From Candidatus Methylomirabilis lanthanidiphila (GTDB lineage Bacteria > Methylomirabilota > Methylomirabilia > Methylomirabilales > Methylomirabilaceae): a stretch of 64,000 nt of DNA. A program made the position numbers and the translations under genes. The first letter of the stretch is position 1; each line of letters opens with the position of its first letter. The stretch is taken from the NCBI GenBank assembly GCA_902196205.1, contig CABIKM010000019.1:1-64000 (forward strand), in the 5' to 3' direction. A model generated the notes under the pieces. It was not told where the DNA came from and searched no databases. It worked only from the letters and a program-made list of their open reading frames with translations. Positions 6,231 to 62,518 of this stretch are shown here, piece after piece.

Positions 6231-6384
6231 GAAGCCAGAAGAGGCAGTACTGCAAGTCGGTTTACTAAGTTTCACTTGTTCACGCAATAAGCTCGACCCC
6301 CTCATCGGGTCATCATCCTTTCTCGACTTCGTCCATCTCTCACTGCTCTTGTAATGATTCCTGGCCGTCACCCGGAAGGGTTCC

Positions 6385-39358: not shown

Positions 39359-40021
39359 ATGTATAATCCCCTGGAATTCCTCTCTAATACAGCCGATGGG
39401 GTATTGGCGGTCGACCAGGAGCAACGGATCGTATTTTGGAATAAGGCGGCGGAGAGGCTCCTCGGTTTCCAGGCGAAAGAGATGCTGGGGAGGTTCTGCC
39501 ATGACGTCATCGGCGGTTGCGATGAATCAGGTCAGCAACTTTGCAAGAGCGGCTGTCTTCAACAATTGCGGGATGCCACACCCGGCGGAGTTGCCGATCG
39601 CAATATCCTGGTAGCCACAAAGACCAGCCAACAGGTATGGCTGAACGTCAGCACTGTATTGGTCCCTTCAAGTCGCCGCCATCTCTGCGCGCTGGTACAT
39701 CTTTTTCGTGACGTTACAGCCCAGAAAGAGCCCACACATTCCATTCAGCAGGTTGTAGATGCGTTGTCGAAGCTTTCCGCCACTCAAGCAACTGCCCGTC
39801 CAGTGAATGACGCTCGGCGTTCCACATCATCAGATCTCACGCGTCGGGAAAAGGAGATACTTCGTCTCATTGCATCGGGTCATACGACAAAGGCCATCGC
39901 GCAAGCACTGTACATCAGTCCTGCTACCGTGCGGAATCATATCCACAGCGTATTAACAAAGCTGGGCGCGAGACACCGACTCGAGGCGGTATTGCTCGCT
40001 GCCAGCCATCACACTCTATGA
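39359..40021 (+). CDS. PAS-domain LuxR-type transcription regulator
   Basis: 220 residues. The N-terminal PAS domain (about 5-120) has TADGVLAVDQEQRIVFWNKAAERLLG and the typical closing strand LCALVHLFRDVTAQK; a cluster of three cysteines (CHDVIGGC, LCKSGCLQQ) could bind a cofactor or metal, as in other cysteine-bearing PAS domains. The C-terminal LuxR HTH is complete: LTRREKEILRLIASGHTTKAIAQALYI (about 158-184) and VRNHIHSVLTKLG. No receiver domain, so sensing is probably direct. First gene of the second exopolysaccharide locus. Confidence 0.88.
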   Translation: MYNPLEFLSNTADGVLAVDQEQRIVFWNKAAERLLGFQAKEMLGRFCHDVIGGCDESGQQLCKSGCLQQLRDATPGGVADRNILVATKTSQQVWLNVSTVLVPSSRRHLCALVHLFRDVTAQKEPTHSIQQVVDALSKLSATQATARPVNDARRSTSSDLTRREKEILRLIASGHTTKAIAQALYISPATVRNHIHSVLTKLGARHRLEAVLLAASHHTL

Positions 40022-40235: not shown

Positions 40236-41672
40236 ATGGGGATCAGAAGTCAAATCCCAGGCACTCCAGAAGATCACAGTGCGCAAGACGCGATCAATGG
40301 GCTCTTGCAGATGCCTGCCGTGGCAATACCCCTTTTATTGAACGGGCTGGATGCCGTAGATCATGGTGTGTTCATCATCTCGAAGGATGAGCGTATCCTT
40401 CATTACAACGCTGCGTATGCGCGTCATCGACGAATCCGACCGGATGAGATGATCGGCCGCCCACTGGAAGACATTGATCGCCGGAACGACGTACGACACT
40501 TGCTTCGAACGGGTGCGCTTCGGCAAGGTGAAACGGTAGTTGTAGAGCGCAGAACGCACAAAGAATGTCTGATCCCTGTTGCGGACAGGCACAATGGACT
40601 GTTGGGAGTTGTTGTGGTCGTTATGCCGGCTATTGAGACAGCTCAAGTCGCCTCACGCGTGGCGGGCCGTCGAATCAACGGCAAGATCGACAACGAAACC
40701 GTCTGGTGTGCTCGCTTCACGATGGCGGATGTCATCGGCAACAGCGACGCGCTTGCTCAGGTCAAAAAGCTGGCGCTGAAAGCCGCGCAAGGCAATTCAT
40801 CGGTTCTTTTGCTGGGGGAGAGCGGGACCGGAAAAGAGATGTTTGCGCATGCGATCCATGTTGCAAGCGCTCGGAGAGACTGTCCTTTCGTGCCGGTTGA
40901 TTGCTCGGCGATCCCCAGAGAGCTGCTGGAGGCGGAGTTGTTCGGCTATGCTCCGGGGGCCTTTACCGGCGCGTCGAAGGAGGGGAAGCCCGGAAGGTTT
41001 GAGCTCGCACGCGGCGGCACAATCCTGCTCGATGAAATCGGCGAGTTGCCGGTCGAACTGCAGTCCAAACTTCTGCGCGTGTTACAGGACCGGCGAATCG
41101 TGAGAGTGGGGGGAACGATCCCTATCCCGGTTGACTTCAGGTTAATTGCGGCAACCAATCGAGATCTGGAGAGCCTGGTTGTTCAAGGGCAGTTCCGACG
41201 CGATTTGATGTATCGTTTGGACATTATTCGCATGGAGATCCCAGCGCTGCGTGAACGACCTGAGGATATTCCATTGTTGGTGGAATATTTCTGGGAAGTG
41301 AAACGACGAGAAACCGGCAATACTGCCAAACTGTCCGCCGAAGCCTTATGGATACTGGAACAGTACTCCTGGCCCGGCAACGTCCGTGAGCTGGCGAATC
41401 TTGTAGAGCGCCTGCTGGTGACTTCCTCAAAGCCTATCATTGAATCCCACGATCTCCCGTTGGCCTTCTGTCAGAACCGGATGAGTCCCTTGTCTTTCGC
41501 GCCATTCCAGTTGGAACTTGTTTCGGCGGAGGCCGAGCGGCGAACGCTGGAACGAGCCATCTGTCAGACCAAAGGTAATCGGAACAAAGCTGCCCAACTC
41601 GTCGGGTTGTCCCGGGCTACCTTTTACCGCAAGTTGAAGCGGTATAAGCTGACCGGTCCCAACTCTATCTAG
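40236..41672 (+). CDS. PAS-type sigma54-dependent transcriptional activator
   Basis: 478 residues. An N-terminal PAS-like domain (LNGLDAVDHGVFIISKDERI, about 33-52) is followed by the AAA+ sigma54 activator domain: Walker A GESGTGKE near 195-202, GAFTGA near 245-250 (sigma54 contact), Walker B GGTILLDEIGELP near 263-275, and RRDLMYRLDIIRMEIPALRERPEDI. The C-terminal Fis-type HTH is GNRNKAAQLVGLSRATFYRKLK. No receiver domain. The intergenic region just downstream carries three dyads and a -24/-12 promoter, so the following operon is the likely target. Confidence 0.95.
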   Translation: MGIRSQIPGTPEDHSAQDAINGLLQMPAVAIPLLLNGLDAVDHGVFIISKDERILHYNAAYARHRRIRPDEMIGRPLEDIDRRNDVRHLLRTGALRQGETVVVERRTHKECLIPVADRHNGLLGVVVVVMPAIETAQVASRVAGRRINGKIDNETVWCARFTMADVIGNSDALAQVKKLALKAAQGNSSVLLLGESGTGKEMFAHAIHVASARRDCPFVPVDCSAIPRELLEAELFGYAPGAFTGASKEGKPGRFELARGGTILLDEIGELPVELQSKLLRVLQDRRIVRVGGTIPIPVDFRLIAATNRDLESLVVQGQFRRDLMYRLDIIRMEIPALRERPEDIPLLVEYFWEVKRRETGNTAKLSAEALWILEQYSWPGNVRELANLVERLLVTSSKPIIESHDLPLAFCQNRMSPLSFAPFQLELVSAEAERRTLERAICQTKGNRNKAAQLVGLSRATFYRKLKRYKLTGPNSI

Positions 41673-41798
41673 GGGGCCCTTCCTTTCTTTCCTTCAGGTG
41701 AAGCCGGTTTTGTCCCGACCCGCAGGGACAGCCTCAACACTGCTTACCATGTCGGCAACGACGCTCCCGTCAACACACCACGGTGCGTTCGAGGCCCG

Positions 41799-41923
41799 GT
41801 CTCACGGGCGAGATACGTGTATCAGTCTCAAGAGAGGCGTCTCATCCCAGAGACACAGGACAACATGGCATATTGGCGGGGGTCGGCGCCGGCGGCTCTG
41901 TTGGCGTGTCTCATGGATGAGAC
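41799..41923. promoter_or_regulatory. three enhancer-like dyads GTCTC-N6-GAGAY
   Basis: Sites at 41799-41814 (GTCTCACGGGCGAGAT), 41839-41854 (GTCTCATCCCAGAGAC) and 41908-41923 (GTCTCATGGATGAGAC) share GTCTC-N6-GAGA(C/T). They lie 115-240 bases upstream of a -24/-12 promoter, the usual place for sigma54-activator binding sites, and directly downstream of an activator gene. Centre spacings are about 40 and 69 bases. Confidence 0.65.
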
Positions 41924-42036
41924 GATACTTTCATTTTTGCGAATTCCGCTCTTCAGATTACTGCCCTGCCAGTAGTCACGTAAGATTCAGCAGTTACAAT
42001 TATTTTAGCACTGCGCGAGCTATTCCTGCCCGCTGC

Positions 42037-42050
42037 GGCATGCGCCTTGC
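42037..42050 (+). promoter_or_regulatory. sigma54 (-24/-12) promoter
   Basis: GGCATGCGCCTTGC: GG (42037-42038) and GC (42049-42050) ten bases apart, matching GGCACG-N4-TTGC with one change in the core. Predicted transcription start near 42062, about 58 bases before the hydrolase GTG. The 447-base gap 41673-42119 holds no convincing gene. Confidence 0.65.
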
Positions 42051-42119
42051 TCTGAGAATGCTGTCACAACGTCCGAGTGTTTCGACTGAACTGAAACCCT
42101 TCGCGATCGTGCGACGAAG

Positions 42120-42926
42120 GTGGCGACGATTCAGTTAGACGATCTCCGCGTGTCGTATTCGGTGGAGGGAAAAGGGATATCCATGCTCTTTATCCACGAG
42201 GTCGCGACCGATCACCGGCTTTGGCACAGTCAGCGCGATTATTTTTCCTCGGCATACCGGCTGATCAGCATTGATGTATTGGGACATGGTCCATTCGAGT
42301 GGCCGCGGCGCGAGCTTTCGATTGAGCGCGCCGCGTTGCAGGTTCGGCAGCTCTTGAAGCGGTTAGGCACAGAGTCGACCTTCGTCATAGGCGTGTCCAT
42401 GGGTGCAGCGCTGGCGATGCGGATGGCGCTGGATACCCCAGAATTGGTCCGAGGGCTTGTGCTGATCAGTCCTTGGCGCTATCTGGATGACCACGCGAGG
42501 AACCTCATCGATCGACTGCTTCGTGTAATTGAGACCAAGGACATGGCTGCCTATGTGGATCTGCTATTGCGCTATACCTTGCCATCTGTGGCGATGGAAC
42601 GCTATCCGCCGAATGCTGCGTGGCTGCGAGCGATGGCGTTGGCTCAGAACACCGCGACAGTGGTCGCCGCCTGGACCGCGTGTTTGGCGTTTGACGTGAG
42701 AAATCAGTTGGGGCGGATTCGTGCGCCCAGCCTGGTCGTTGCAGGAATGGACGACCTGTTTACGCCGCCTTATCTGGCCAGAGCGGTAGCTGAGGAACTG
42801 CCCGCTAAGGAGTTGGAGATCTGGGATGGACATAGTCATTTCCCGTTCCTGGAGGATCCCGAGCGTTTTAATCGCCGGATCGACGCGTTTATCCGTTCCT
42901 GCATAAATCCGGTGGGAGCAGAGTGA
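42120..42926 (+). CDS. alpha/beta-hydrolase fold protein
   Basis: 268 residues. Nucleophile elbow GVSMG near 93-97 (Ser95), oxyanion strand MLFIHEVATDHRLW near 22-35, acid region VAGMDDLFTPP near 206-216 and catalytic His in WDGHSHFPFLEDPERF near 239-254 (the usual H-F-P-x-x-E-x-P end). Could deacylate or transfer an acyl group, but no substrate is evident. GTG start at 42120 gives the N-terminal strand TIQLDDLRVSYSVEG expected of the family. First gene after the sigma54 promoter; it shares TGATG with the NusG-like gene. Confidence 0.85.
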   Translation: MATIQLDDLRVSYSVEGKGISMLFIHEVATDHRLWHSQRDYFSSAYRLISIDVLGHGPFEWPRRELSIERAALQVRQLLKRLGTESTFVIGVSMGAALAMRMALDTPELVRGLVLISPWRYLDDHARNLIDRLLRVIETKDMAAYVDLLLRYTLPSVAMERYPPNAAWLRAMALAQNTATVVAAWTACLAFDVRNQLGRIRAPSLVVAGMDDLFTPPYLARAVAEELPAKELEIWDGHSHFPFLEDPERFNRRIDAFIRSCINPVGAE

Positions 42927-43486
42927 TGGAAGCTATCACGTCGGCAACTGTGGCGCCCCGGTGGCCCTCTTATAGAGATCCCATGAAGTGGTACGTGGTA
43001 TACACCAGACCTCGCCATGAGCGAACGGTGTGCGAGCGGCTGTTGCGTGATGGCTTTGAGTCGTGGCTTCCCTTGGCAATTGTCTGGCGAGCGACGAAAG
43101 GTGAGCCGCGCAAAGCCTCAACACCCCTGTTCCCTCGGCGCCTCTTTGTGCGGTGCTATCTCGAGATGTATAACCTCCTTGAATTGGTGACGACACCGGG
43201 CGTGATACGTCTCATGGTGGATGAGCATGGTCGGTTCGTCGTGATCCCCGATGAGGAGGTTGTTCTGCTGCGGCGTCTCTGCGAAGCCGAAGTCGCTGTC
43301 GAGGCGGCAACCTCCGGTTGCCCAGGCGTACGAGGGCAGGTGGTTGGCGGGCCGCTCGCTGGAATAACGGGCGTCATCCGAAGTGACCACCCGAAGGAAC
43401 TGCTCATCCCGATGCAGACGCTAAAGGAATACGTCACCGTTGCAATCGGTGAGGGAGAAGTGCTTCCGGTCTCCGTTGGCGAGTGA
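42926..43486 (+). CDS. NusG/UpxY-family antiterminator (first paralogue)
   Basis: 186 residues. NGN domain starts KWYVVYTRPRHERTVCERLL near 20 with LFPRRLFVRCYLEMYNLLELVTTPGVIRLM further on. The C-terminal KOW-like part GQVVGGPLAGITGVI is near 138. Such specialised NusG paralogues (UpxY, RfaH, LoaP) help RNA polymerase through long polysaccharide operons. ATG at 42926 overlaps the hydrolase stop; GGGAG is upstream. An unusual N-terminal extension of about 18 residues precedes the domain. Confidence 0.88.
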   Translation: MEAITSATVAPRWPSYRDPMKWYVVYTRPRHERTVCERLLRDGFESWLPLAIVWRATKGEPRKASTPLFPRRLFVRCYLEMYNLLELVTTPGVIRLMVDEHGRFVVIPDEEVVLLRRLCEAEVAVEAATSGCPGVRGQVVGGPLAGITGVIRSDHPKELLIPMQTLKEYVTVAIGEGEVLPVSVGE

Positions 43487-43651: not shown

Positions 43652-44248
43652 TTGCCAGAATGTCTTGCCGGTAAGCCGCCGTTGGCCGACTACGAGAGAG
43701 CCGGAGAAGAGCCTTCGGAGCGTCGAACGCGCAGCGGACCCGATAGAGAGCCCGCGTGGTATGTACTGTGGACGCATAGTCACTGCGAACGGCTCGTATA
43801 TGACCAGCTCGCAGCAAAAGGATTTGACCTGCTGCTGCCGGAGATCGAAGTGTGGGCCATGCGTAGCGGCATCAGATATCGTTCGCGCGTCCCGATGTTC
43901 CCGAGCTATCTTTTCCTGCACCATGCGATCGATGCCGACAGTCACATTGAGGTGCGCAAGGCAAGAGGCCTTGTGCGGATTCTTGGAGAACGGTGGGATC
44001 GACTGGCGGTAGTCCCGGACACGGAGATCGACGCGATTGAGAAGCTGATGCGCTCCCACCTGTCGGTTCTGGCCCATCCGTACTTGCGCGCAGGGCAGCG
44101 GGTGCGTATCACCAGGGGGCCGCTCGCCGACATTGAGGGTATCCTGGTCAGAAATAATTCGGATAAAGGCATCGTAGTTCTTTCCGTTCACCTGCTTCAC
44201 CGAAGCGTCGCAGTAGAAGTAGATTGTACCGTGGTGGCCGCTGCCTAA
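43652..44248 (+). CDS. NusG/UpxY-family antiterminator (second paralogue)
   Basis: 198 residues. NGN domain AWYVLWTHSHCERLVYDQLA near 35-54, FPSYLFLHHAI and RKARGLVRILG; KOW motif GQRVRITRGPLADIEGILV near 151-169. Only distantly like the preceding paralogue, so not a recent duplicate. No ATG is available: TTG at 43652 (AAAGGGGG seven bases before) is the best start, leaving a 34-residue charged leader. The 165-base gap before it has no recognised signal. Confidence 0.82.
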   Translation: MPECLAGKPPLADYERAGEEPSERRTRSGPDREPAWYVLWTHSHCERLVYDQLAAKGFDLLLPEIEVWAMRSGIRYRSRVPMFPSYLFLHHAIDADSHIEVRKARGLVRILGERWDRLAVVPDTEIDAIEKLMRSHLSVLAHPYLRAGQRVRITRGPLADIEGILVRNNSDKGIVVLSVHLLHRSVAVEVDCTVVAAA

Positions 44249-44342: not shown

Positions 44343-44813
44343 ATGGCATCTATTCGAATCGTTATTGCTGAGGGTGATCCAGGGTTTCGTGAGGGGTTCT
44401 GTGAGCATCTCAGGTTGGTGCGGGACTTCGAAATAGTTGGAGAGGCGTGTGACGGACGAGAAGCGATCGCAAGTATGGGGCGGCTGGACCCGGATATCCT
44501 GATCCTCGATCTAGACCTGCCACCGATCGATGGCATGGACGTCCTTCGAGTGGTCGGATGGTTCAGCCCAAAAACACAAGTCATCATCCAGTCCGGCCAT
44601 GCTGAAGAGTCGACTATCCTGGAAGCGCTTGAACTCGGGGCCAGGGGATACATTGTCAGGGGTGGTGAAATAGACTTGGAAAAGGCGATCAGAGTCGTAC
44701 GGCAGGGCGAGGTGTGGGTCGGACGTCGGGTGTTGGCTCGAGTGTTGGATCGCCTTATCGGCGTTGGCGGTTCGGCCTTCCAGGTAAACGATGACGAACG
44801 ATTCTCCGCATGA
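44343..44813 (+). CDS. receiver-domain protein lacking the HTH output domain
   Basis: 156 residues. NarL-type receiver: IRIVIAEGDPGFREGFCEHL, ILILDLDLPPIDGMDVL (phosphoacceptor Asp near 54-56), VIIQSGHAEEST, LELGARGYIVRGGE. The usual lysine of the GAKGYLLK motif is arginine here. The linker helix RQGEVWVGRRVLARVLDRL that normally leads into a LuxR HTH is present, but the protein stops soon after (DDERFSA). Either an HTH was lost or it works by protein contact. No histidine kinase is nearby. Confidence 0.85.
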   Translation: MASIRIVIAEGDPGFREGFCEHLRLVRDFEIVGEACDGREAIASMGRLDPDILILDLDLPPIDGMDVLRVVGWFSPKTQVIIQSGHAEESTILEALELGARGYIVRGGEIDLEKAIRVVRQGEVWVGRRVLARVLDRLIGVGGSAFQVNDDERFSA

Positions 44814-44903
44814 GTTGGGCGATACGGAGTAGCGACCATATCAGTACAGGAGCGAGAGCTCTTATGGTCGGAGAGAGCGGTAGCTTTGAAGAGGAGTGTA
44901 GGA

Positions 44904-45659
44904 ATGAAACGAGATTGCTCGAGAAGCGTAGGGAGCCAAACGCGAATCCCAATCCCGCAGACGGCAGCCCTCTTGAGTATCTTATCTCTTTTATGGGGCT
45001 GCGGGGGGACTTCCATCACGGTCCCCCCCCTTTCCCTCGAAGAGATTCCCCGTATTCAAGCGGTCGGCAACTATCCCGATCAGAACTACCGGATCGAGCC
45101 GGGTGACACAGTCCGGATACAATACACCTTTCATCGCGAAATGGAACAGGAGGAGGTTGTCCGGCCGGATGGCAAGATGGCAGCCAAACTGGCAGGAGAG
45201 ATCACTGTATCCGGTATGACACCTGGACAACTTGAAAGGCTGTTGGTCGGACGAACCAGTGATCAGCTCCGTGATCCGGAAGTGGTAGTGAGCATCACCC
45301 GCTTTGGCGAAAAAAACGTGTTTGTCGGCGGGGAGGTCGGAAGGCCAGGATTGGTTGCCTACCGGAAGGGGTTGACCCCTCTCCAGGCGGTCATCGCCGC
45401 GGGTGGTTTTCAGACGACGGCTCGAACCGACAGCGTGATCCTCATCCGCAGGGGAGAGGGTGACGCGTTTGTGAGCCGCAAACTCGACCTGGCGGCAACG
45501 GTCACTGACGGCATCAAAGAATCCCTTCCTCTCGCTCCCCATGACGTTGTGTATGTACCCAGAACCGGCATCGCCGAAGCGGATCTCTGGGTTCGGCAAC
45601 ATATTACAGACCTGATTCCTTTCGTGGGCAAGGCAGGGGCCTCCGCTCGGTATCCATAG
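44904..45659 (+). CDS. polysaccharide export lipoprotein (XrtA-type, second locus)
   Basis: 251 residues. A lipoprotein signal (ALLSILSLLWGC, Cys33) is followed by a poly_export domain (YRIEPGDTVRIQYTFHREMEQ, VVRPDGKMAAKLAGEITVSG) and one SLBB domain (VFVGGEVGRPGLVAYRKGLT). Shorter than the Wza-like protein at 19711-20739, as typical for XrtA/EPS loci. ATG at 44904 is used; the TTG at 44886 adds six unneeded residues. Confidence 0.92.
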   Translation: MKRDCSRSVGSQTRIPIPQTAALLSILSLLWGCGGTSITVPPLSLEEIPRIQAVGNYPDQNYRIEPGDTVRIQYTFHREMEQEEVVRPDGKMAAKLAGEITVSGMTPGQLERLLVGRTSDQLRDPEVVVSITRFGEKNVFVGGEVGRPGLVAYRKGLTPLQAVIAAGGFQTTARTDSVILIRRGEGDAFVSRKLDLAATVTDGIKESLPLAPHDVVYVPRTGIAEADLWVRQHITDLIPFVGKAGASARYP

Positions 45660-45796
45660 ATGATAGGCCTATGTACATCACTCACCTTGGCCCGAGATAT
45701 GGAGCATCCCACATTATCTGCGTGAGGCGGTTAGCGGAGAAACGCATGAAGCTGCCGTTTGCGACCGTCATCAAGCTGCTTAGGTCTTTGGACTAA

Positions 45797-47668
45797 ATGT
45801 ATACTGCCTACTTCGGCTTTCAAGAGAAGCCTTTTACCGTTACCCCGGACCCACGATTTTTCTTTCCCAATCCTGTACACCATGAGGCTTACGCCAGCCT
45901 GCTATACGGGATCCGCGAACGCAAGGGCTTCATAGTATTGAGCGGCGAGGTTGGGACCGGTAAGACGACTCTCCTCCGAAGACTGATGAACAACATGGAG
46001 GCGAGTGTTCGCTTTGTGTTTTTTTACAATACCACCCTGACCTTTGAGGAGATCGTAAGCTTCACCTGTGAGGATCTGGGGCTGTCGACCAAAGACGGTG
46101 GACGACTCTCGAAAATTCAGGCGCTTAATGAATTTCTGATTGAGCAGTTGAAGAAAGGGGGGACGGGAGTCCTTCTGATCGACGAGGCGCAGAACCTGAG
46201 GGAGGAGGTATTAGAAAACCTCCGGTTACTGTCGAATCTCGAGACGGCCAGTGAAAAACTTATCCAAATTGTGCTGGTCGGACAACCAGAGCTTGAGACG
46301 AAGCTCGATCAACCAAGCCTCCGCCAGCTTAAACAGCGCATTGCCCTTCGTTGTCGACTTGACCGTCTCAAGGACCGGGAGGTAGGCCCCTTCATTCACT
46401 ACCGACTTCGCGCGGTCGGCTATGAACGGCAGGACCTTTTTCTCCCGGAGGCCATCCAGCGCGTGGCGCTATATTCGAAAGGCATCCCCAGGCTGATCAA
46501 TATGATCTGCGATAACGCCTTATTAATCGCCTATGCGGCCTCCCGAAAGACGGTGTCTGCTGAGATGATCGAGGAGGTAGCCAGCGATCTACGGTTAAAA
46601 GAGGTCGAGGCCCTCCAGCCATCGAATGATGAGCCTATGCCTGCTGCGGTCTCGCCGCTCCCACCTCAGGTTGAAGACATCCAATCTCCGGCGAGTGAGC
46701 CCGCTCAGGCGCCGGTTCAGCGTAAGCCGAGGCGCTTGGGCCGAGTGAGGGTCTGGACCTTCCTGGGACTCGTTCTCCTGGGCGGTACAGCGACAATTAC
46801 CGCTCCGCTGCTGGTCAGGGATCGCGTGTCGGGTCTTACCCTCACAATAGAAGAATTCCTTAAGAGGGTCAGGGGGCATGTCACATTCTCGCAGCCTCAT
46901 GTCGTCTCCAGCGAAACTAAGCAGCGAGCGGTCTCTTCGCCCCTCGGAGGTGAGCCCGTGGCTGACCTCCAAACGAAGTCTGAGAGTCAAAGCGCCTTGA
47001 ATCCGGATGGGTCGCCTCCGGCGCCGGCGGAGCAGGTCGAGCCGCGCCCCGCATCAGATCTCACCAAAGGAGATGATTCGCGGACGAAGTGGGAGGCCAA
47101 CTCACCGGTCCTCGACTCCAATCCGTCAGCCAAGAAGAACGCGATAGTTGAGACAAAGGGTGAGACTCAGGGCCGGATTGCAAGTCCCTCGCAGCCTCTT
47201 GCCTTAACGAATAAATGGAAGGATCAACCGGTCGTAATTCCATACGGCGCTACCATCTCTGAGATTGTTGTTCAGGCTTATGGAGATTACAACGCACTTG
47301 CCGTCGACCTCATCAAGGAATTCAACCCCCATATTGAAAACCTGAACTGGGTGAAAGCAGGAGAGAGGCTATGGCTCCCCCCCCTCACGCGGGACACCTT
47401 ACTGCATCGGGACAAGACCGACCGCTATCGTCTGATCCTGGCATCGCCGGAGGAAATACGGGCGGCGAGGACACTCCGAGATACTCTGCTGCAGAGGGGA
47501 TATGACGCAGTGATAATACCTCGAAGGGTTTCGGACAATCTCACCTTATACCGAGTAGAAATCGGCGGCTTGAAAAACCTTGCAGCGGCGGATCAAGCTT
47601 GCCACATCGCCACAGCGAGGTGCTGGATTTCGTTTGATGAGGATGCACGTCAAAGGGGGCAAGAATGA
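45797..47668 (+). CDS. XrtA/PEP-CTERM-type ATPase with LysM-like and SPOR-like C-terminus
   Basis: 623 residues. An ExeA/GspA-like AAA ATPase typical of XrtA exopolysaccharide loci: MYTAYFGFQEKPFTVTPDPRF, Walker A GEVGTGKT (50-57), Walker B VLLIDEAQNL (125-134), sensor VLVGQPEL. A membrane segment near 320-340 (VWTFLGLVLLGGTATITAPLLV) divides it from a periplasmic part: a disordered linker, a LysM-like IPYGATISEIVVQAYGDYNAL near 484, and a SPOR-like end (RLILASPEEIRAARTLRDTL). The peptidoglycan-binding end suggests anchoring the export machine to the wall. It overlaps the next start (ATGA). Confidence 0.92.
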   Translation: MYTAYFGFQEKPFTVTPDPRFFFPNPVHHEAYASLLYGIRERKGFIVLSGEVGTGKTTLLRRLMNNMEASVRFVFFYNTTLTFEEIVSFTCEDLGLSTKDGGRLSKIQALNEFLIEQLKKGGTGVLLIDEAQNLREEVLENLRLLSNLETASEKLIQIVLVGQPELETKLDQPSLRQLKQRIALRCRLDRLKDREVGPFIHYRLRAVGYERQDLFLPEAIQRVALYSKGIPRLINMICDNALLIAYAASRKTVSAEMIEEVASDLRLKEVEALQPSNDEPMPAAVSPLPPQVEDIQSPASEPAQAPVQRKPRRLGRVRVWTFLGLVLLGGTATITAPLLVRDRVSGLTLTIEEFLKRVRGHVTFSQPHVVSSETKQRAVSSPLGGEPVADLQTKSESQSALNPDGSPPAPAEQVEPRPASDLTKGDDSRTKWEANSPVLDSNPSAKKNAIVETKGETQGRIASPSQPLALTNKWKDQPVVIPYGATISEIVVQAYGDYNALAVDLIKEFNPHIENLNWVKAGERLWLPPLTRDTLLHRDKTDRYRLILASPEEIRAARTLRDTLLQRGYDAVIIPRRVSDNLTLYRVEIGGLKNLAAADQACHIATARCWISFDEDARQRGQE

Positions 47669-48435
47669 GTAGGACATACGATGCTTTAAAGAAGGCCGAC
47701 GCCGAGAGAGCGGGTGCAGGGAACGGTTCTAGTCGGCCGCCTGATCCTGTAATCTCGCCACCTCCACAAGGCTTGAGATCGCCCAGAATGAGCTTCACGC
47801 TCGATCCTTCTGTAGAGGAGGAATATCAGAAACTGCGCGGCAATCTCTTTGCCAGACCGGGAAAAGACGGTCTACGCACGGTCATGCTTGTCGGGTCGAG
47901 CCACGGCGAAGGGGTCACAACAACTTGTACCATTCTGGCCTCGGTTCTTGCCAGAGCCGGTGTGGGTGAAGTCGTCCTGATCGATGCGAACCTGAGAAGT
48001 CCCTCATGCCATGATCTCTTCACAGCCTCCGGCTCAACGAAAGGGCTAACCGATCTGTTGACAGGCGGGGTTAGGTCCAAAGACCTTGTCTGGCCGACTT
48101 CCATCCCAAACCTCTCGGTGATCAAATCCGGCCGTCCTCTCCTCCAGAGCCCCTCGCATCTGTACCAAGGGCAGCTTGTGGAATTGCTGGTCCAACTGCG
48201 CGAGGAATTTCGCTACACCATCCTTGATTGTGCCCCGGTGAAGGATTACTCCGACTCTTCCTTCCTTGCTCCCAATGTCGATGGGATTGTCTTGGTCATC
48301 CGGGCAGAGCGGACCAGGATCGAAACAGCCATCAAAACTAAGCGCCAACTTGAATGGGCGGGGGGGCAAGTCATCGGGGCCGTTTTGAACAGCAAGAAAA
48401 ACCACATTCCCATGGTGATCGAACGTCTCTTGTAA
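47665..48435 (+). CDS. CpsD/CapB-type ATPase with altered Walker A
   Basis: 256 residues, like the free-standing tyrosine-kinase ATPases paired with a Wzz protein. SRTYDALKKADAER at the N-terminus is common to XrtA-associated members. Walker A is GSSHGEGVTT (77-86), with Val84 where lysine is expected; A' VVLIDANLR (103-111) and Walker B YTILDCAP are near normal. No C-terminal tyrosine cluster. Known BY-kinases need the lysine, so this is likely a non-kinase ATP-binding or structural partner of the Wzz protein. Confidence 0.88.
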   Translation: MSRTYDALKKADAERAGAGNGSSRPPDPVISPPPQGLRSPRMSFTLDPSVEEEYQKLRGNLFARPGKDGLRTVMLVGSSHGEGVTTTCTILASVLARAGVGEVVLIDANLRSPSCHDLFTASGSTKGLTDLLTGGVRSKDLVWPTSIPNLSVIKSGRPLLQSPSHLYQGQLVELLVQLREEFRYTILDCAPVKDYSDSSFLAPNVDGIVLVIRAERTRIETAIKTKRQLEWAGGQVIGAVLNSKKNHIPMVIERLL

Positions 48436-48458
48436 CGTTTTTCGCAGGAGGAACCCCC

Positions 48459-49970
48459 ATGGAGACGAGTGAGCTATTTCACCCGGAGAGGACCCAAGAT
48501 CATCGCGACCTTGAGCTGTTCCGCAAAAGGACGCCGGATCATGGCGCCCCTGAACCTTGTCGCACTATTCTGAATACTCTCTTCAAATGGAAGCGGTTGA
48601 TCCTGACCTGTCTGGTGGCTGTCGTTGTTCCTGTATGCATTGTAACCCTCCTAAAGGATGCTCAATATCAGGCCACGACTAAGATACTCCTGAAGGCCTC
48701 GCGCCCCCAGATTGCCCTCAGTCCTGGAGGACTGGAGCGGAACGTCAACTGGCCCATCACGCCAGCCGTGCTCAAAACTGAGATGCAGATCCTGGAAAGT
48801 CCGGATCTGGTCCAAAAGGCTGGGGAAGCATCCGGCTACCCGCTTCTGAATGACGGCACACAAGAATCCACCGCTCAGAATGGGCGGACGCTTGCGTCTC
48901 TCCTGGGGCGACTCGATGTCAATCCCGTGCCCGACTCTAATGTGATGGAAGTAAGCTTCCGGGATCAGGACCCCGTTCGGGCGACCCGATTCCTCAACAC
49001 GTTGGCCGGTCGTTATCTCGAGAAACATGTAGCGGTGCACAGGGGCAACGGCGACGCCGCTAATTTCTTTACGCAACAGGCTGCTCTTTACAACACCCGA
49101 TTTGAGAAGGCCAAGGAGGCCCTCGCGCAGTACCAGGGGAAGGATAAGATTATCGACCTTAACCAGGAGATCACGCTGAATCTGACAACACTTTCCAAAT
49201 TCGAGGGGACGCTCAAGGAGATCCAGGCTGGAATCGAAGGCGCAGAGAAGGAGATCGGGATCCTTGAGCAGCAAGTGAAACAGCAACCGGATCAGATCTC
49301 AACGCAGAACACAGTGATGGTGAACCCGGAGGTCGCCTTCATTAGTTCAAAACTCATCGAGCTTGAACGGCAACGAAATGAGCTGCTTCAGCGTTACACG
49401 CCCCAGAGCCGTTTCGTAGTGGAAAAGGAAAACGAAATAGCTGCCCTACGGAAGCAATTAGAGGGGACCCAACAGCACGTTGCCGGCGATACAATCATTT
49501 CCAGGAATAAGCTGAGGGAGACCCTGAGCGAGCAGCTATTCCTCAAGAAGGCGGCCCTCGATTCCATCAAGGCCAAGAGAAGCGCCCTTCTCCCGGAGAT
49601 GGCTCCCTACCAAGCGCGGCTCAGTCTCCTTAAGAGCAGGAGTCTCGATCTGGAGAGGCTCCAGCAGGAGTTGAGCTCGGCTCGCGACGCCTATCTTCTC
49701 AGTACAAAGAAGGCCGAGGAGGTCCGCATGTCCACAGCGATGGACGAAGAAAAAATGATCAATGTGGTGATCCTGCAAGAGGCCGTTGCGCCTGTTTTCC
49801 CCTTGCCGAAAGGTTTGCTGATGGCTTTAGCGATGGCGGCGGTCTCCGGCTTGATCTTGGGTGTGGGGACCGCATTCGCCCTGGAGTTTCTTAATACGAC
49901 CATCAAACACGAGGATGATGTCGAGCGATTTCTCAAGGTTCCGGTTCTTGCCACTGTCCGCGAGTTCTAA
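48459..49970 (+). CDS. Wzz/GumC-type polysaccharide chain-length protein
   Basis: 503 residues without a kinase domain. N-terminal membrane segment RLILTCLVAVVVPVCIVTLL near 47-66, long periplasmic coiled coils (e.g. AALYNTRFEKAKEALAQYQG; LDLERLQQELSSARDAYLL), and C-terminal membrane segment LLMALAMAAVSGLILGVGTAFALEF near 449-473. Forms the co-polymerase with the preceding CpsD-like ATPase. CAGGAGGAAC precedes the ATG; the frame further upstream overlaps the ATPase gene. Confidence 0.92.
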   Translation: METSELFHPERTQDHRDLELFRKRTPDHGAPEPCRTILNTLFKWKRLILTCLVAVVVPVCIVTLLKDAQYQATTKILLKASRPQIALSPGGLERNVNWPITPAVLKTEMQILESPDLVQKAGEASGYPLLNDGTQESTAQNGRTLASLLGRLDVNPVPDSNVMEVSFRDQDPVRATRFLNTLAGRYLEKHVAVHRGNGDAANFFTQQAALYNTRFEKAKEALAQYQGKDKIIDLNQEITLNLTTLSKFEGTLKEIQAGIEGAEKEIGILEQQVKQQPDQISTQNTVMVNPEVAFISSKLIELERQRNELLQRYTPQSRFVVEKENEIAALRKQLEGTQQHVAGDTIISRNKLRETLSEQLFLKKAALDSIKAKRSALLPEMAPYQARLSLLKSRSLDLERLQQELSSARDAYLLSTKKAEEVRMSTAMDEEKMINVVILQEAVAPVFPLPKGLLMALAMAAVSGLILGVGTAFALEFLNTTIKHEDDVERFLKVPVLATVREF

Positions 49971-50005
49971 GATCGTTCAGGGATAGCTCACTCACGCAGC
50001 CCACT

Positions 50006-51418
50006 ATGCAGATTTCAGCCGCTAGAAGTACCGCAATGGAGCCGTGGGCTCTTGGGGCCGGGGGATTGTGCCTCGCCTTGCTCGTCGGCGGTGTGGCTTA
50101 CCTTGGCGGCCCGGTGCTCGTACCGGTCGTGATCGTGGCCATCGTGATGGGGTCTGTCATCCTTTTTCGACCGGAAGTAGGGGTTCTTGTCCTGCTCGCC
50201 ACGTTCCTGTTCAAGTATCCGAAGTTCCTTGAAGGATCAGGCTGGCTGACGATAAATAATCTCCTGGGGCTGACCTTAAGTGCGGTCCTCCTGGCCACTG
50301 TCGCTGTCCGAAAACAGCTCTGGTTTCTCAAGGCACCTCAGGTCCAGATGTTTCTCCTGCTGGGATTGGTCATGTATGTCAACTGGCTGTTCGTTGCTCG
50401 TATAGAGGCGCCCGCTCATCTGAGTCGCCTGGATTTAACCGGCAGCGACGTAGAGCGCTATATTACTCGACTGGCCTTTTTGACCTTCTTTGTCGCCTTC
50501 ATCCGGACCTCTCGACAGCTCCTGTTGGTGACCGGCGTGTTACTTATTGCCATCTTCCTGACCGTTCCAAACGCCATCCTGCACTCCCTGACGGCCGCCG
50601 GGAAAGTAGAAACACTCAGGGCAGCGGCAACCACCGGGATCGAGGCGGCGAGGAACTCCAATTATCTAGCCTTTATCTGTCTCATGGGGATCACTCTTAT
50701 CTGGTTTGCGCTTGTGGAGTACCGGGGAAGGTTGTTGCGTCTCCTGGGGAGCTTGGCGATTCTTACCCTGGTATTAACCATCGTTCTGAGCGGCTCACGG
50801 GCCGGCTTGATCAACCTGACACTTTTGCCCTTACTGCTTTTAGGCCAAAGCGGCTTACGACGAGGTCAGGTCGCTGCGGTGATCTTTCTACTTGTCCTCT
50901 CCATCAGTGTGAGCCTTGTTCTCGTTCCTCAGCCTGTCCTTCAGCGACTTGGCACCATCTTACCAACATACGAAGGCGAGGCAGTGTCCCGATCAACCGA
51001 ACTTCGTCTGTTGATGCAACACATGGGCCTTACGCGGTTTTGGGAGAACCCCTTTATAGGCGTGGGAATTGGGAACCTTCGATGGATGAATGCAATGGAC
51101 CCCACCTCCGGTGGCATACCGTTGGCTGCCCACAACGCGTATCTTCTAGCTCTCGCCGAGGGTGGAATCGTTCTCCTCGCAGCGTACCTTCTGCTGTTTT
51201 GGCAAACGTTTCGGGACCTTGGAAAAGCTCTGACGCTGTCCACTCTAGCCCCCGAAGTGTATCTCCGATGGCTGATCCTGGCCACCAGGACCAATCTTAT
51301 CCTCCTCATGGTCTTCTCCTTCTTTACGGACACCTGGAAGGAGTTCTATTACCTTCTCATCCTGGGAACCACGGCGGTGCTGTCTCAGCTCTATCGAAAG
51401 GCTGCAGAACAGTCATGA
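50006..51418 (+). CDS. O-antigen ligase/Wzy-family membrane protein
   Basis: 470 residues, 10-12 membrane segments. The Wzy_C region is recognisable: VLSGSRAGLINLTLLPLLLLG near 260 and GIPLAAHNAYLLALAEGGIVLLAAYLLLF near 370-398 (HNAYL is the usual conserved His segment). Such proteins polymerise repeat units or ligate polymer to a carrier. Shares ATGA with the next gene. ATG at 50036 is a possible shorter start. Confidence 0.88.
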   Translation: MQISAARSTAMEPWALGAGGLCLALLVGGVAYLGGPVLVPVVIVAIVMGSVILFRPEVGVLVLLATFLFKYPKFLEGSGWLTINNLLGLTLSAVLLATVAVRKQLWFLKAPQVQMFLLLGLVMYVNWLFVARIEAPAHLSRLDLTGSDVERYITRLAFLTFFVAFIRTSRQLLLVTGVLLIAIFLTVPNAILHSLTAAGKVETLRAAATTGIEAARNSNYLAFICLMGITLIWFALVEYRGRLLRLLGSLAILTLVLTIVLSGSRAGLINLTLLPLLLLGQSGLRRGQVAAVIFLLVLSISVSLVLVPQPVLQRLGTILPTYEGEAVSRSTELRLLMQHMGLTRFWENPFIGVGIGNLRWMNAMDPTSGGIPLAAHNAYLLALAEGGIVLLAAYLLLFWQTFRDLGKALTLSTLAPEVYLRWLILATRTNLILLMVFSFFTDTWKEFYYLLILGTTAVLSQLYRKAAEQS

Positions 51419-52578
51419 GTCCCATCCCGATCCTCTACACCATTCCACGGTTGTCTATCGGCGGGGCGCAAACCCACCTGTTAGAGGTGCTGCGCCTCCT
51501 GAATCGTCGGCGCTTTTCTCCACTCCTGTGCTGCCTGGCTACCGACCAAGGCGATTCCTCCTATCTCATCCAACAGGTGCGAGAGTTGGAGGTGCCCATG
51601 ATTGATGCGGGGATACGGAATGTCCCTAACTCTCTCATCCGTCCCCATACATTCCTTCAGATGGCACGGGTAGCTCGGATACTGAGAAATTATGGGGTCC
51701 AGGTGGTCCACAGCTACCTCTTTCCTGCGAACTGGTTTGGGACGCTCACGGCTCGTCTCGCTCGCGTGCCTGTAACAATCGCCAGCAAGCGCAATGTGGA
51801 TGTCTATACGCAGGCCACAGATCGATGGGCATGTCGCATGATTAATCGACTGGCAGACCGCGTGACTGCCGTTTCCCAGACAGTCCGAGATCATGTTCAT
51901 CAGACCGAAGGGTGCCCGCTGGAAAAGATCGTCGTCATTCCCAATGGAGTGGATGCCAACCGATTGAGGTGGACAGCCTGTGAACTGACAGACACGAAAG
52001 AAGTGCTGGGAGCTGTTGCGGGGGAGGCAGTGATTGGAACCATCGCTCGCCTCGTCTGGTATAAGGGCCTGGAATATCTATTGAAGGCGGCAGCCTTGAT
52101 TGTAGGGCGCCAGCCTTCAGTCCGGTTCGTTGTGGTCGGGGACGGTCCCCTTCGCCGGCCGCTGGAAGAGAAGGCTAGAGCGTTGAGACTGAATGGGGCA
52201 GTCCGGTTCTTAGGCGCGGTACCCAACGCATCGAGTCTCCTCCCAGGCTTTGACATTTTTGTCCTCTCCTCCCTGTGGGAAGGGATGTCTAATAGTCTTC
52301 TTGAAGCCATGGCTGCCGGAAAGCCCGTAGTGGCTACCGATGTAGGGGGAGGTTCCGAAGTGGTGCTGGAGGGGAAGACGGGATTCCTGGTGCCGCCTAA
52401 GGACCCTGAAGCGCTGGCCGACGCCGTTCTGCGCCTTCTGGCCGCGCCGGATCTGGCCCGAAATCTGGGAGTAGCCGGACGGGTTCGCGTCGAGTCCAAG
52501 TTTACTCTCGAGATAATGGTCGCCCGCTTGGAAGAGTTATACGACAGCCTCCTGACGTCACGGATTGGTGCGTTATGA
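51415..52578 (+). CDS. GT4-family glycosyltransferase
   Basis: 387 residues. IPRLSIGGAQTHLLEVLRLL near 9-28, IPNGVD near 176, IGTIARLVWYKGLEYLLKAA near 208, VLSSLWEGMSNSLLEAMAAGKPVVATDVGG near 283 (EX7E catalytic block). Complete. Overlaps both neighbours by four bases (ATGA). Upstream frame to 51040 is inside the ligase gene. Sugar unknown. Confidence 0.92.
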   Translation: MSPIPILYTIPRLSIGGAQTHLLEVLRLLNRRRFSPLLCCLATDQGDSSYLIQQVRELEVPMIDAGIRNVPNSLIRPHTFLQMARVARILRNYGVQVVHSYLFPANWFGTLTARLARVPVTIASKRNVDVYTQATDRWACRMINRLADRVTAVSQTVRDHVHQTEGCPLEKIVVIPNGVDANRLRWTACELTDTKEVLGAVAGEAVIGTIARLVWYKGLEYLLKAAALIVGRQPSVRFVVVGDGPLRRPLEEKARALRLNGAVRFLGAVPNASSLLPGFDIFVLSSLWEGMSNSLLEAMAAGKPVVATDVGGGSEVVLEGKTGFLVPPKDPEALADAVLRLLAAPDLARNLGVAGRVRVESKFTLEIMVARLEELYDSLLTSRIGAL

Positions 52579-53894
52579 AGCCGCTCGCCTATATCGTGGG
52601 AACCTTCCCCACCATCACGGAGACCTTCATCCTTGGGGAAATGCAAGCGTTGTGCGTCCAAGGCGTCACGCTGCACCTGTTTGCCTTGCGGCGACCGATC
52701 GAGATTGCTCAGTATGCGCCGAAGACCGACTTCGGAGCGATGATGCACTACGGCCCCGCGTTTCTTGATCGGCATCTGTGGGGGGCCAACCTTCGGATGC
52801 TCCGCGCCTACCCTGGACGGTATCTCAAAATTGTGGGCGGCCTGCTCGCGCGAACCGCAGTGAACCCGATCCATTGCCTGAAGGCCCTTGGAGTATTTCC
52901 GATTGCGGTTGCGTTCGCCGAAGTTGTCGCTGAAAGTGGGATCGAGCATATTCACGCTCACTGGGCAACGCACCCGGCAACCGTCGCCTACATCATCTCC
53001 CGTCTGCTCAAAATCCCGTTCAGCTTCACGGCTCACGCGTATGATGCCACCTTAATTCGGACGATGATGCGGGAAAAGGTACGACGGGCGGCATTTATTA
53101 TCACCTGTACCCGCCTTAACCGCAGGTTACTGACGGCTCTGTTTCCGGAGTCTGAGAGTAAGATCTTAGTTAACCATCACGGCATCTTCCTTGACAGATT
53201 TATTCCCAACGGCAAACAGATTGTGCAACCCCAGGCCGAATTCCGCATTCTGTCCTGCGGCAGTCTTTACCCGAGAAAAGGATTTCCTGATCTCGTGGAG
53301 GCCTGTCGACTCCTGCGGGACAAGGGCTGGAAATTCCGATGTGAAATTATCGGCGAGGGGCCGTTACGACGCCGGCTAGAGCGTTCTATCGCACTGCACC
53401 ATTTAGAGGAGGTCGTCAGCCTTCGGGGCGCTTTACCCCAGAAGGAGGTCATCGACAGCTATCGAGCAGCAGACCTATTCGTGTTGTCGTGTACGACAGA
53501 CCATCTTGGATGGGACGAACTCTTCAGCGATCCGCTATTACTGCTGGAGGTGGGACTGGCTGCTCCTTTCAGGCCCGTCACGGATGGCATCCCAAACGTC
53601 CTGGTCGAGGCCATGGCTATGGGGATCCCCGTGGTCTCGACAAATGCCGGAGCCGTGCCCGAACTCATACAGGACGGCCGGACAGGAACCCTTGTTCCTG
53701 AGCGAGATCCTCGCGCTCTCGCCGCGGCTATAGACCATCTGCTCACGAATCCCCATACGCGTCAAGAGCTTGCTCGCGAGGCCAGGGAGACCGTCCGGCG
53801 ATACTTTGATCGGTCTAAGAATGTCGGGGCGTTGCTGACGACTTTTACTTCTCGACTCCAGACGAACGGTAACCGGATAAGTCGTTGCGATTAA
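52575..53894 (+). CDS. GT4-family glycosyltransferase
   Basis: 439 residues. YIVGTFPTITETFILGEM near 5, IEHIHAHWATHPATVA near 122, the usual SLYPRKGFPDLVEACRLL near 228 and GIPNVLVEAMAMGIPVVSTNAGAVPEL near 337. About 25 extra residues (TTDHLGWDELFSDPLLL...) are inserted just before the EX7E block, between VLSC and GIPN. The insertion site is a loop in known folds, so activity may survive. Donor unknown. Confidence 0.9.
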   Translation: MKPLAYIVGTFPTITETFILGEMQALCVQGVTLHLFALRRPIEIAQYAPKTDFGAMMHYGPAFLDRHLWGANLRMLRAYPGRYLKIVGGLLARTAVNPIHCLKALGVFPIAVAFAEVVAESGIEHIHAHWATHPATVAYIISRLLKIPFSFTAHAYDATLIRTMMREKVRRAAFIITCTRLNRRLLTALFPESESKILVNHHGIFLDRFIPNGKQIVQPQAEFRILSCGSLYPRKGFPDLVEACRLLRDKGWKFRCEIIGEGPLRRRLERSIALHHLEEVVSLRGALPQKEVIDSYRAADLFVLSCTTDHLGWDELFSDPLLLLEVGLAAPFRPVTDGIPNVLVEAMAMGIPVVSTNAGAVPELIQDGRTGTLVPERDPRALAAAIDHLLTNPHTRQELAREARETVRRYFDRSKNVGALLTTFTSRLQTNGNRISRCD

Positions 53895-53904
53895 GGGTGA
53901 CGAG

Positions 53905-55023
53905 ATGCTCCCTCCTGCAGCCGTCATTGAAAGTGTGGGGTCGGAGTTACCGACCGTATCAATCGTGATTCCCGTGCGAAACGAGGAGGACTGCATCGCC
54001 CGGTGCCTCAACGCTGTCCTTGCGCAGACCTATCCTCCCGCCTTACTGGAGATCATCGTGATAGACGCACACTCTCATGATCGATCGCGTGCGATCGTTG
54101 CGGATTACGCGGGGCGTGACGCGCGGATCACGCTGCTCTCCAACCCCATAGGTACGATTCCCGCCGGTTTGAACGTAGGAATACGGGCCGCTCGGGGAGA
54201 GGTGATTGCGCGGGTCGATGCCCGAACTATTCTAGCCTCTGACTATCTGAGCACCGCAGTTGAATTACTGGTCTCGATGCGGGCGCATAATGTGGGCGGC
54301 CCCGTCCGGAGCATTACCCCTACGCTTGGCGGGCGGGCGCTGGCGTTAGCTTGGGGGTCTCGCTTTGGCCTCGGTGGAGCATCGGAACGCTACCGGGAAT
54401 CTACGGAATGCTGGACCGACACAGTCTATCTCGGTGTCTATCCGCGTAAGGTGTTCGAGACTATCGGCCTCTACGACGAGAATATTCTTCAAGATGAGGA
54501 TGCGGAGCTCAACTATCGGCTTCGATCTCATGGGGGACGGATTCTCGTGAGCCCGAGGCTACGCTCGTATTACTTTAACTCCCCCTCACTGCGACGGTTG
54601 GCGTGGAAGAATCTCGTCTTCGGGTACTCGAAGGTCCAAGTATGTCAAAAATATCCTCGGATGATGAACTGGCGCCACTTCGTCCCCCCCATTTTTGTAG
54701 CTGGTCTCCTGCTCGGCCCCATTCTGGGAAGTGTCCATTGGCTCTTTGGCGCCGTCTGGATTGTTGGCGTGGGCAGTTACCTGCTGGTGTGTCTCGGGGT
54801 GATGGGCCGCTACCTCCTTCAGGGAGAGGGACGGACAACGATGCTCCTCCCTCTGATCTTTCCGATTCTGCATCTGAGCTGGGGGGCCGGGTTCCTGGCG
54901 GGAACCGTGCGCTTCTTCTCGCGATGGTTCCGGTATGAGCCCGCGCCGCCGCCGCCTCTCTCTCAGGCATCGGCACCCCTCATTCAGGAAGCGATTGGAT
55001 TTGCCGTCCGGAAAAGACCATGA
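53905..55023 (+). CDS. GT2-family glycosyltransferase (ExoA-like)
   Basis: 372 residues. GT-A fold: VSIVIPVRNEEDCIARCLNAVL near 18-39, IIVIDAHSHDRS near 50, ARVDARTILASDY near 93 (DxD-like Asp), and ILQDEDAELNYRL near 193. Two or three C-terminal membrane segments (FVPPIFVAGLLLGPILG; VVGSYLLVCLG-like) anchor it at the cytoplasmic face. Resembles the succinoglycan transferase ExoA. Shares ATGA with the next gene. Confidence 0.9.
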   Translation: MLPPAAVIESVGSELPTVSIVIPVRNEEDCIARCLNAVLAQTYPPALLEIIVIDAHSHDRSRAIVADYAGRDARITLLSNPIGTIPAGLNVGIRAARGEVIARVDARTILASDYLSTAVELLVSMRAHNVGGPVRSITPTLGGRALALAWGSRFGLGGASERYRESTECWTDTVYLGVYPRKVFETIGLYDENILQDEDAELNYRLRSHGGRILVSPRLRSYYFNSPSLRRLAWKNLVFGYSKVQVCQKYPRMMNWRHFVPPIFVAGLLLGPILGSVHWLFGAVWIVGVGSYLLVCLGVMGRYLLQGEGRTTMLLPLIFPILHLSWGAGFLAGTVRFFSRWFRYEPAPPPPLSQASAPLIQEAIGFAVRKRP

Positions 55024-55886
55024 ATCCATCAGCCATGGCTGATTTCTTTGAGCGTCTGGGGCACCGGGTGGTCCGGACCAAAAGCTCTTATTGGTATGAC
55101 GTCCGCCGCCGCTTCTACCTCGGCTTTCCTCACCACCGGCTGATAGACCCCAGCCCAGATGAACTGTACCCGTTCTTTCTGCGACTCAATGGAGGGGTTC
55201 GATACTCCGGTCCCCCCGAGAGTCCCGGCCGCCAGAGCTATGCATTGGTCTGCCGGGATCGGCGCTACGATCTGGACCTTCTCAGTTCCAATACTCGAAG
55301 CAAAGTCCGTCGTGGGCTCAAGCACTGCACAGTCGAGCAACTGGAGCCAAGCTATATCATGGCACACGGGAAATCGGTTCATGATGATACCTTGCGGCGG
55401 ATCCGAATTCACGACCCGTATCCCTGGGAGACTTACTGGCGCGCCGTGAAGGAGTCGAATTGTGTTGCAGTATGGGGTGCGCTGATCGGTAAGACGCTGA
55501 CGGCGTACCTGGTGGCGGTGTTGGTGGAGGGGTGTTGGGAAATTCTGGTTGTGCGTTCATTAAGCGAATTCCTGCGATGTTATCCCAATAACGCCCTGCT
55601 TTTTACCGTACTCCGCCAGATGCTTTCCAACCCTCAGATCGGGCAGGTGTTTTTCGGGGCAGAATCCTTGGAAGGGTTGAGCAGTATCGATGAATTTAAG
55701 TTGAGCATGGGCTTTGTAAAGTCGCCGATCCGCCAGCGGATCGTTCTTCATCCCTTCTTGCGGCCGGCCCTCTGCAACCCTCTGGCGGTGCGGGCTGTCG
55801 GCGGGCTCGCTCACAGACAGCCTCAGAGTGAGTTTTGGCGCAAGCTCGATGGGCTGACAGCCTTCGTCGCATCGGGCGGAGCTTAA
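55020..55886 (+). CDS. FemAB/GNAT-like protein of the exopolysaccharide locus
   Basis: 288 residues. The GNAT/FemAB-like core includes TRSKVRRGLKHCTVEQL near 97-113, DDTLRRIRIHDPYPWETYWRAV near 122, VWGALIGKTLTAYLVAVL near 150 and FFGAESLEGLSSIDEFKLSMGF near 200. FemAB-like proteins in XrtA loci are thought to add amino-acid or acyl groups to glycans or lipid intermediates; the substrate here is unknown. Starts within the previous gene's stop (ATGA). Confidence 0.75.
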   Translation: MNPSAMADFFERLGHRVVRTKSSYWYDVRRRFYLGFPHHRLIDPSPDELYPFFLRLNGGVRYSGPPESPGRQSYALVCRDRRYDLDLLSSNTRSKVRRGLKHCTVEQLEPSYIMAHGKSVHDDTLRRIRIHDPYPWETYWRAVKESNCVAVWGALIGKTLTAYLVAVLVEGCWEILVVRSLSEFLRCYPNNALLFTVLRQMLSNPQIGQVFFGAESLEGLSSIDEFKLSMGFVKSPIRQRIVLHPFLRPALCNPLAVRAVGGLAHRQPQSEFWRKLDGLTAFVASGGA

Positions 55887-55937
55887 CGGGAAAGCGACGC
55901 AAGGATTCGGGCAGGCTTGGGAAAGGAGCCAATCGGT

Positions 55938-58640: not shown

Positions 58641-58783
58641 ACCGGAAGACAAAAGGCGGCCCTCCCCAACGACGGTTGGCGACCAGGCTGGGGAGGGCCA
58701 GAGCGACAGACGCCGCTCCGGATTTCCTGTGAGGAAATCTCCGCACGGCGCCGATCACCCATTTGCATTGTACGAGGAAAGAA
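58641..58783 (+). other. structured leader before the DegT aminotransferase gene
   Basis: GGCCCTCCCCA (58658-58668)/TGGGGAGGGCC (58689-58699) forms an 11-bp stem closing a 20-base loop. GATTTCCT-GTG-AGGAAATC (about 58731-58749) is a second hairpin. No T-tract follows either. Could be a 5' regulatory structure or processing site; it matches no riboswitch I can name. Confidence 0.4.
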
Positions 58784-62507: not shown

Positions 62508-62518
62508 TGGAGGATTCC

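What the first reader, a model, noticed from the sequence alone, without database searches (positions are those of the whole stretch)
41799..42050. Complete sigma54 control module between an activator gene and the next operon
Directly downstream of a PAS-type sigma54 activator gene are three 16-bp dyads, GTCTC-N6-GAGAY, then a GG-N10-GC promoter (42037-42050) 58 bases from a predicted transcription start to the hydrolase-NusG operon. The geometry is that of an enhancer plus sigma54 promoter. The activator lacks a receiver domain, so a PAS ligand would switch on antiterminators that in turn could release the whole exopolysaccharide operon. The dyad motif is not one I recognise for a named activator.
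Basis: partly seen in the sequence, partly recalled or inferred. Interest (0 to 1): 0.75.

Follow-up and report, generated by a model that had tools for sequence, protein, structure and literature searches.

The report
Dedicated sigma54 switch for slime genes
Between a regulator gene and an exopolysaccharide operon lies a genuine enhancer (three matching DNA sites) plus a sigma54 promoter, retained in the one related species that has the locus; it is a well-formed but conventional bacterial on-switch, whose DNA motif turns out to be shared with the acetoin-operon activators of acetogenic bacteria.

Summary
Three 16-bp dyads (GTCTC-N6-GAGAY at 41799, 41839, 41908) and a strong -24/-12 site (GGCATGCGCCTTGCT, 42037-42051) lie between a PAS-AAA-Fis activator and a hydrolase-NusG operon. 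In 400 random 64-kb sequences no two such dyads fell within 130 bp. A congeneric genome (G008) has the same locus: the promoter is there, the dyads are at identical spacing (40 and 69 bp, then 123 rather than 122 bp to the promoter), and dyad half-sites are conserved above background (24/30 vs 84/180).

New evidence that the neighbouring activator owns the dyads: of about 70 related activators examined, only Acetobacterium AcoR-type proteins share its recognition helix (GLSRA[ST]-YRK-K-Y), and they carry pairs of the same dyad beside their genes, upstream of sigma54 promoters for acetoin-dehydrogenase operons. So the motif is not orphan.

Best reading: a locus-dedicated enhancer-binding protein switching on an operon with two NusG-type antiterminators followed by exopolysaccharide genes. 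The PAS-ligand and antiterminator-cascade steps are inference; the PAS part diverges fast (37%) and is a separate reading frame in G008. The design is textbook: new member of a known kind.

The parts
39359..40021 (+). PAS + LuxR-type HTH regulator gene upstream; conserved in the G008 locus (52% identity)
   Evidence: Pfam GerE and PAS; alignment
40236..41672 (+). Sigma54 activator (bacterial enhancer-binding protein): PAS (aa 38-129), AAA+ (aa 166-333 with GAFTGA loop), lid, Fis HTH (aa 431-470); no receiver
   Evidence: 73% identical AAA-HTH in G008
41526..41645 (+). Fis-type HTH coding region, recognition helix GLSRATFYRKLKRY, invariant in G008 except F/L; same helix type as Acetobacterium AcoR (GLSRASLYRKIKKY)
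41799..41814 (+). Enhancer dyad 1, GTCTCACGGGCGAGAT
   Evidence: degenerate counterpart GTTTCATTAATGCAAT at L149:7409
41839..41854 (+). Enhancer dyad 2, GTCTCATCCCAGAGAC
   Evidence: counterpart GTCTCAGTCATAAGAA at L149:7449, same 40-bp spacing
41908..41923 (+). Enhancer dyad 3, GTCTCATGGATGAGAC
   Evidence: counterpart GTCTCACCGCTAAGAC at L149:7518, same 69-bp spacing
42037..42051 (+). Sigma54 -24/-12 promoter GGCATGCGCCTTGCT; predicted +1 near 42062
   Evidence: counterpart CTGCGGCACATGTCTTGCT at L149:7648
42120..42926 (+). Alpha/beta hydrolase (esterase-like), first gene of the operon
   Evidence: 66% identical in G008 only
42923..43486 (+). NusG-family specialised antiterminator 1 (UpxY/LoaP/RfaH-like), overlaps the hydrolase stop
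   Evidence: 68% in G008
43652..44248 (+). NusG-family specialised antiterminator 2; TTG start preceded by AGGGGG
44343..44813 (+). Receiver-domain protein (REC only); not found at this position in the G008 locus
44886..63931 (+). Exopolysaccharide export/synthesis genes of XrtA/PEP-CTERM-associated type (Wza-like, ATPase, tyrosine kinase, chain length, glycosyltransferases, sugar transferase, decarboxylase)

Best explanation
The region is the control unit of a locus-dedicated bacterial enhancer-binding protein. The PAS-AAA-Fis protein made from 40236-41672 binds as dimers to three GTCTCA-N4-TGAGAC-type sites 41799-41923, about 145-255 bp upstream of the start point. DNA bends so that its AAA ring contacts RNA polymerase-sigma54 at 42037-42051, and ATP hydrolysis opens the promoter. 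Transcription covers the hydrolase, two NusG-type antiterminators and probably the exopolysaccharide genes behind them; the NusG proteins would keep polymerase going along that long operon. Shown by sequence: the sites, the promoter, their co-conservation, and the shared recognition helix and motif in Acetobacterium. Inferred: binding, activation, the start site, operon extent, the input signal, and the NusG role.
For: Exact dyad triplet far above chance. Promoter is the top match of its intergenic region in both genomes. The G008 locus has the same gene order, dyads at the same 40- and 69-bp spacing, and 123 vs 122 bp from dyad 3 to the promoter, with half-site identity 24/30 against 84/180 elsewhere (Fisher p = 5e-4), although the stretch between activator and first dyad is 230 bp longer in G008. 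AAA-HTH 73% identical with a near-invariant recognition helix. The same dyad, in pairs or triplets upstream of sigma54 promoters, occurs in Acetobacterium next to activators with the same recognition helix, and beside none of the other related activators checked. rpoN present. Geometry fits published UAS rules: 100-250 bp upstream, often multiple, beside the EBP gene, motif tracking the HTH (PMC6615313).
Against: Only one other genome carries the locus, so conservation rests on one pair of species, and dyad 1 is weak there (7 of 10 half-site positions retained). Because the region is homologous, equal spacing is partly inherited, not independent. The six Acetobacterium loci are close relatives, so they count as roughly one independent case. 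The sigma54 motif by itself is not enriched in this genome. No expression or binding data.
Confidence: 0.85

Rival explanations
1. The dyads are bound by another regulator of the locus, most likely the PAS-LuxR protein encoded at 39359-40021, and not by the sigma54 activator.
For: The LuxR-type gene is conserved at the same place in G008, and LuxR-type dimers also bind dyads of similar size (general knowledge).
Against: The same dyads occur in Acetobacterium beside sigma54 activators with the same recognition helix and upstream of sigma54 promoters; no LuxR-type gene was seen among the ORFs listed around the L071 example. They are not found upstream of the luxR or activator genes here.
Confidence: 0.08
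2. The -24/-12 box is a chance match; the hydrolase operon is read from a sigma70-type promoter or by read-through from the activator gene, and the dyads are an unrelated operator.
For: GGCAY-N5-TTGCW is no more frequent than its reversed control in the genome; a weak sigma70-like match lies at 41973-42000, at the rate expected by chance.
Against: The box is conserved as a block (CTGCGGCA......CTTGCTC) in otherwise diverged DNA, at the same distance from the dyads, and is the best-scoring site in both intergenic regions.
Confidence: 0.06
3. The sigma54 promoter serves only the hydrolase-NusG pair, and the exopolysaccharide genes have their own promoter further down; coupling is then only through the NusG proteins in trans. 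(This rival concerns the extent of the operon and is compatible with the enhancer-promoter reading.)
For: Gaps of roughly 165, 95, 72 and 137 bp separate the following genes.
Against: No convincing terminator or second sigma54 site on the + strand in these gaps; both NusG genes and the export gene keep the same order and strand in G008.
Confidence: 0.3

Closest known systems
AcoR-type activators and acoABCL promoters (Acetobacterium loci L071, L058, L053, L044, L055, L039)
   Same: Dyads GTC[TG]CA-N4-TGAGA beside the activator gene, sigma54 promoter downstream, GLSRA[ST]-YRK-K-Y recognition helix
   Different: Longer N-terminus (664 aa in L071, against 478 aa here), target is acetoin dehydrogenase and not exopolysaccharide, overall identity about 44%
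PrdR and other single-component PAS-AAA-Fis enhancer-binding proteins (NF041552)
   Same: PAS-AAA-Fis order, best NCBIfam match (387 bits)
   Different: Below the family's cut-off (795 bits); PrdR sites are described as TGT/ACA repeats with 10-12 bp between (PMC6615313)
PrsK/PrsR control of PEP-CTERM genes (Haft et al. 2006, PMC1569441)
   Same: Sigma54 plus Fis-type activator controlling exopolysaccharide-associated genes
   Different: PrsR is a response regulator with a receiver domain and partner kinase; motif-to-promoter distance there about 63 bp; the present protein is below the PrsR cut-off (324 of 502.6 bits)
UpxY / LoaP / RfaH specialised NusG antiterminators
   Same: NusG paralogues at the head of a polysaccharide operon
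   Different: Both are below the family cut-offs; here two in tandem, preceded by a hydrolase and a sigma54 promoter

Membership tests
Sigma54-dependent enhancer-binding proteins with adjacent UAS | AAA+ sigma54-interaction domain with GAFTGA loop and Fis HTH | tested here: met
   Pfam PF00158 217 bits, HTH_8 43 bits; GAFTGA present in the sequence
Sigma54-dependent enhancer-binding proteins with adjacent UAS | -24/-12 promoter in the target intergenic region | tested here: met
   42037-42051, conserved in G008
Sigma54-dependent enhancer-binding proteins with adjacent UAS | Repeated dyads 100-250 bp upstream of the promoter, conserved beside the orthologous activator | tested here: met
   three dyads; two clear and one weak in G008 at the same spacing
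Sigma54-dependent enhancer-binding proteins with adjacent UAS | rpoN in the genome | tested here: met
   TIGR02395, 441 bits
Sigma54-dependent enhancer-binding proteins with adjacent UAS | Binding and activation in the laboratory | not testable with these tools
   needs footprinting and transcription assays
AcoR (acetoin activator) | Same recognition helix and same dyad | tested here: met
AcoR (acetoin activator) | Next to acoABCL | tested here: not met
   target is hydrolase-NusG-EPS
PrsR (TIGR02915) | Receiver domain and score above 502.6 bits | tested here: not met
   no receiver; 323.8 bits
PrdR (NF041552) | Score above 795 bits | tested here: not met
   387 bits
UpxY antiterminators (NF033644) | Score above 100 bits | tested here: not met
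   86.7 and 89.5 bits; related, below the cut-off

The most novel reading that the evidence does not exclude
The alpha/beta hydrolase, first gene of the switched operon, makes or destroys the small molecule sensed by the activator's PAS domain (as RsbQ, an alpha/beta hydrolase, serves the PAS protein RsbP in Bacillus), so the module would be a self-reinforcing or self-limiting chemical switch that commits the cell to exopolysaccharide through two antiterminators. In G008 the PAS sensor would act in trans as a separate protein.
Probability: 0.1. Interest if true: 0.6.

Novelty: new member of a known kind. Interest (0 to 1): 0.35.

Why it matters
It gives a concrete, testable control point for exopolysaccharide production in what is probably an uncultured methane-oxidising lineage, puts a sigma54 switch in front of specialised NusG antiterminators, and links a dyad motif to a recognition helix across phyla, which could help predict sites for other enhancer-binding proteins.

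Tried and rejected
Genome-wide use of the motif: the other exact GTCTC-N6-GAGAC sites examined in this genome have neither a second strong dyad nor a sigma54 promoter nearby (the site on contig C26 was not read), and exact GTCTCA-N4-TGAGAC sites in 95 genomes of the class show no other EBP plus dyad array plus promoter; the module looks single-locus. HTH-only search of the class found no close helix outside G008. The 43%-identical activators in G012 and G085 lack dyad arrays. Literature searches for GTCTC/GAGAC with sigma54 gave only primer matches in the papers opened. The 146-aa ORF 41698-42138 across the dyads is not kept in G008, so it is taken as non-coding.

Full report
Observation. The pattern GTCTC-N6-GAGAY has zero-mismatch matches nowhere else in the window. 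In 400 first-order resamplings of the 64 kb, no pair of exact sites came within 130 bp. The box GGCATGCGCCTTGCT is the highest-scoring sigma54 match of the intergenic region and unique at that score on the + strand. By itself this motif is not informative: it occurs 17 times in the genome, as often as its reversed control.

Genes. The upstream gene encodes PAS-AAA-Fis with GAFTGA and no receiver. Downstream lie an alpha/beta hydrolase, two NusG-family proteins, a lone receiver, and then exopolysaccharide genes with matches to XrtA/PEP-CTERM-associated models. The genome has rpoN and a particulate methane/ammonia monooxygenase subunit. Together with its kinship pattern this suggests Candidatus Methylomirabilis; that name is an inference, since the tool hides names.

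Conservation. Of 95 genomes in the class/phylum only G008 has the locus: activator 73%, hydrolase 66%, NusG 68%. Its intergenic region is longer next to the activator gene, yet from the first dyad to the promoter it aligns with the window with a 1-bp difference. Dyad starts are 40 and 69 bp apart in both, and dyad 3 lies 122 or 123 bp from the GG. Half-site positions are identical at 24 of 30, other positions at 84 of 180 (p = 5e-4). The 5' half GTCTCA is unchanged in dyads 2 and 3. The promoter block CTGCGGCA......CTTGCTC is unchanged.

Who binds. A scan of flanks of about 70 related activators from many phyla showed paired dyads of this type just downstream of the gene only in Acetobacterium loci. 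Those activators also alone share the helix GLSRA[ST]-YRK-K-Y. There the dyads precede TTGGCACGGTTCTTGTT and an acetoin-dehydrogenase operon. A second Acetobacterium operon has three such dyads and TTTGGCACAAATATTGCT. Motif tracking HTH is the published rule for clostridial EBPs (PMC6615313). This makes the neighbouring activator the likely binder and removes the 'unrecognised motif' label; it is one evolutionary case, not many. The AcoR name for the Acetobacterium proteins rests on their position before acoABCL-type genes, read from translations here.

Signal. The PAS part is poorly conserved (37% against 73% for AAA-HTH), and in G008 a short insertion puts it in a separate ORF with an ATGA overlap. 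This is either a true split or an assembly error. The ligand idea is therefore open, and control by PAS may differ between the two species.

Output. No convincing terminator and no second sigma54 site on the + strand were found in the gaps after the NusG genes, so read-through into the exopolysaccharide genes is likely but unproven. RsbQ is among the distant relatives of the hydrolase by sequence (1wom, E = 1.6e-12) but not the closest; a hydrolase-PAS feedback is only a speculation.

Verdict. Real, well-formed, conserved once, and explained by the ordinary sigma54 design of an enhancer-binding protein next to its target.

Noticed in passing
L149:5629-7052 (G008): The activator orthologue is split: PAS ORF 5629-6060 and AAA-HTH ORF 6057-7052 overlap by ATGA, with a 5-nt insertion relative to the window that adds a purine-rich, Shine-Dalgarno-like stretch upstream of the second ATG. 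True split with coupling, or assembly error.
   Followed up: partly
L215:1501-1665 and L071:6993-7170: Acetobacterium has two sigma54 operons for acetoin-dehydrogenase-like enzymes preceded by the same GTCTCA-N4-TGAGAC dyads, in pair and in triplet.
   Followed up: partly
window 39359-40021: A PAS-LuxR one-component regulator is conserved upstream of the activator in both genomes; its role in the circuit is unknown.
   Followed up: partly
window 44343-44813: A receiver-only protein sits in the window's operon between NusG2 and the export gene but was not found there in the G008 locus.
   Followed up: no
window 60012-62507: One ORF joins a polyprenyl-phosphate sugar transferase domain at the N-terminus with a CoA-binding/epimerase-type domain at the C-terminus, a fusion order that looked unusual.
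   Followed up: no
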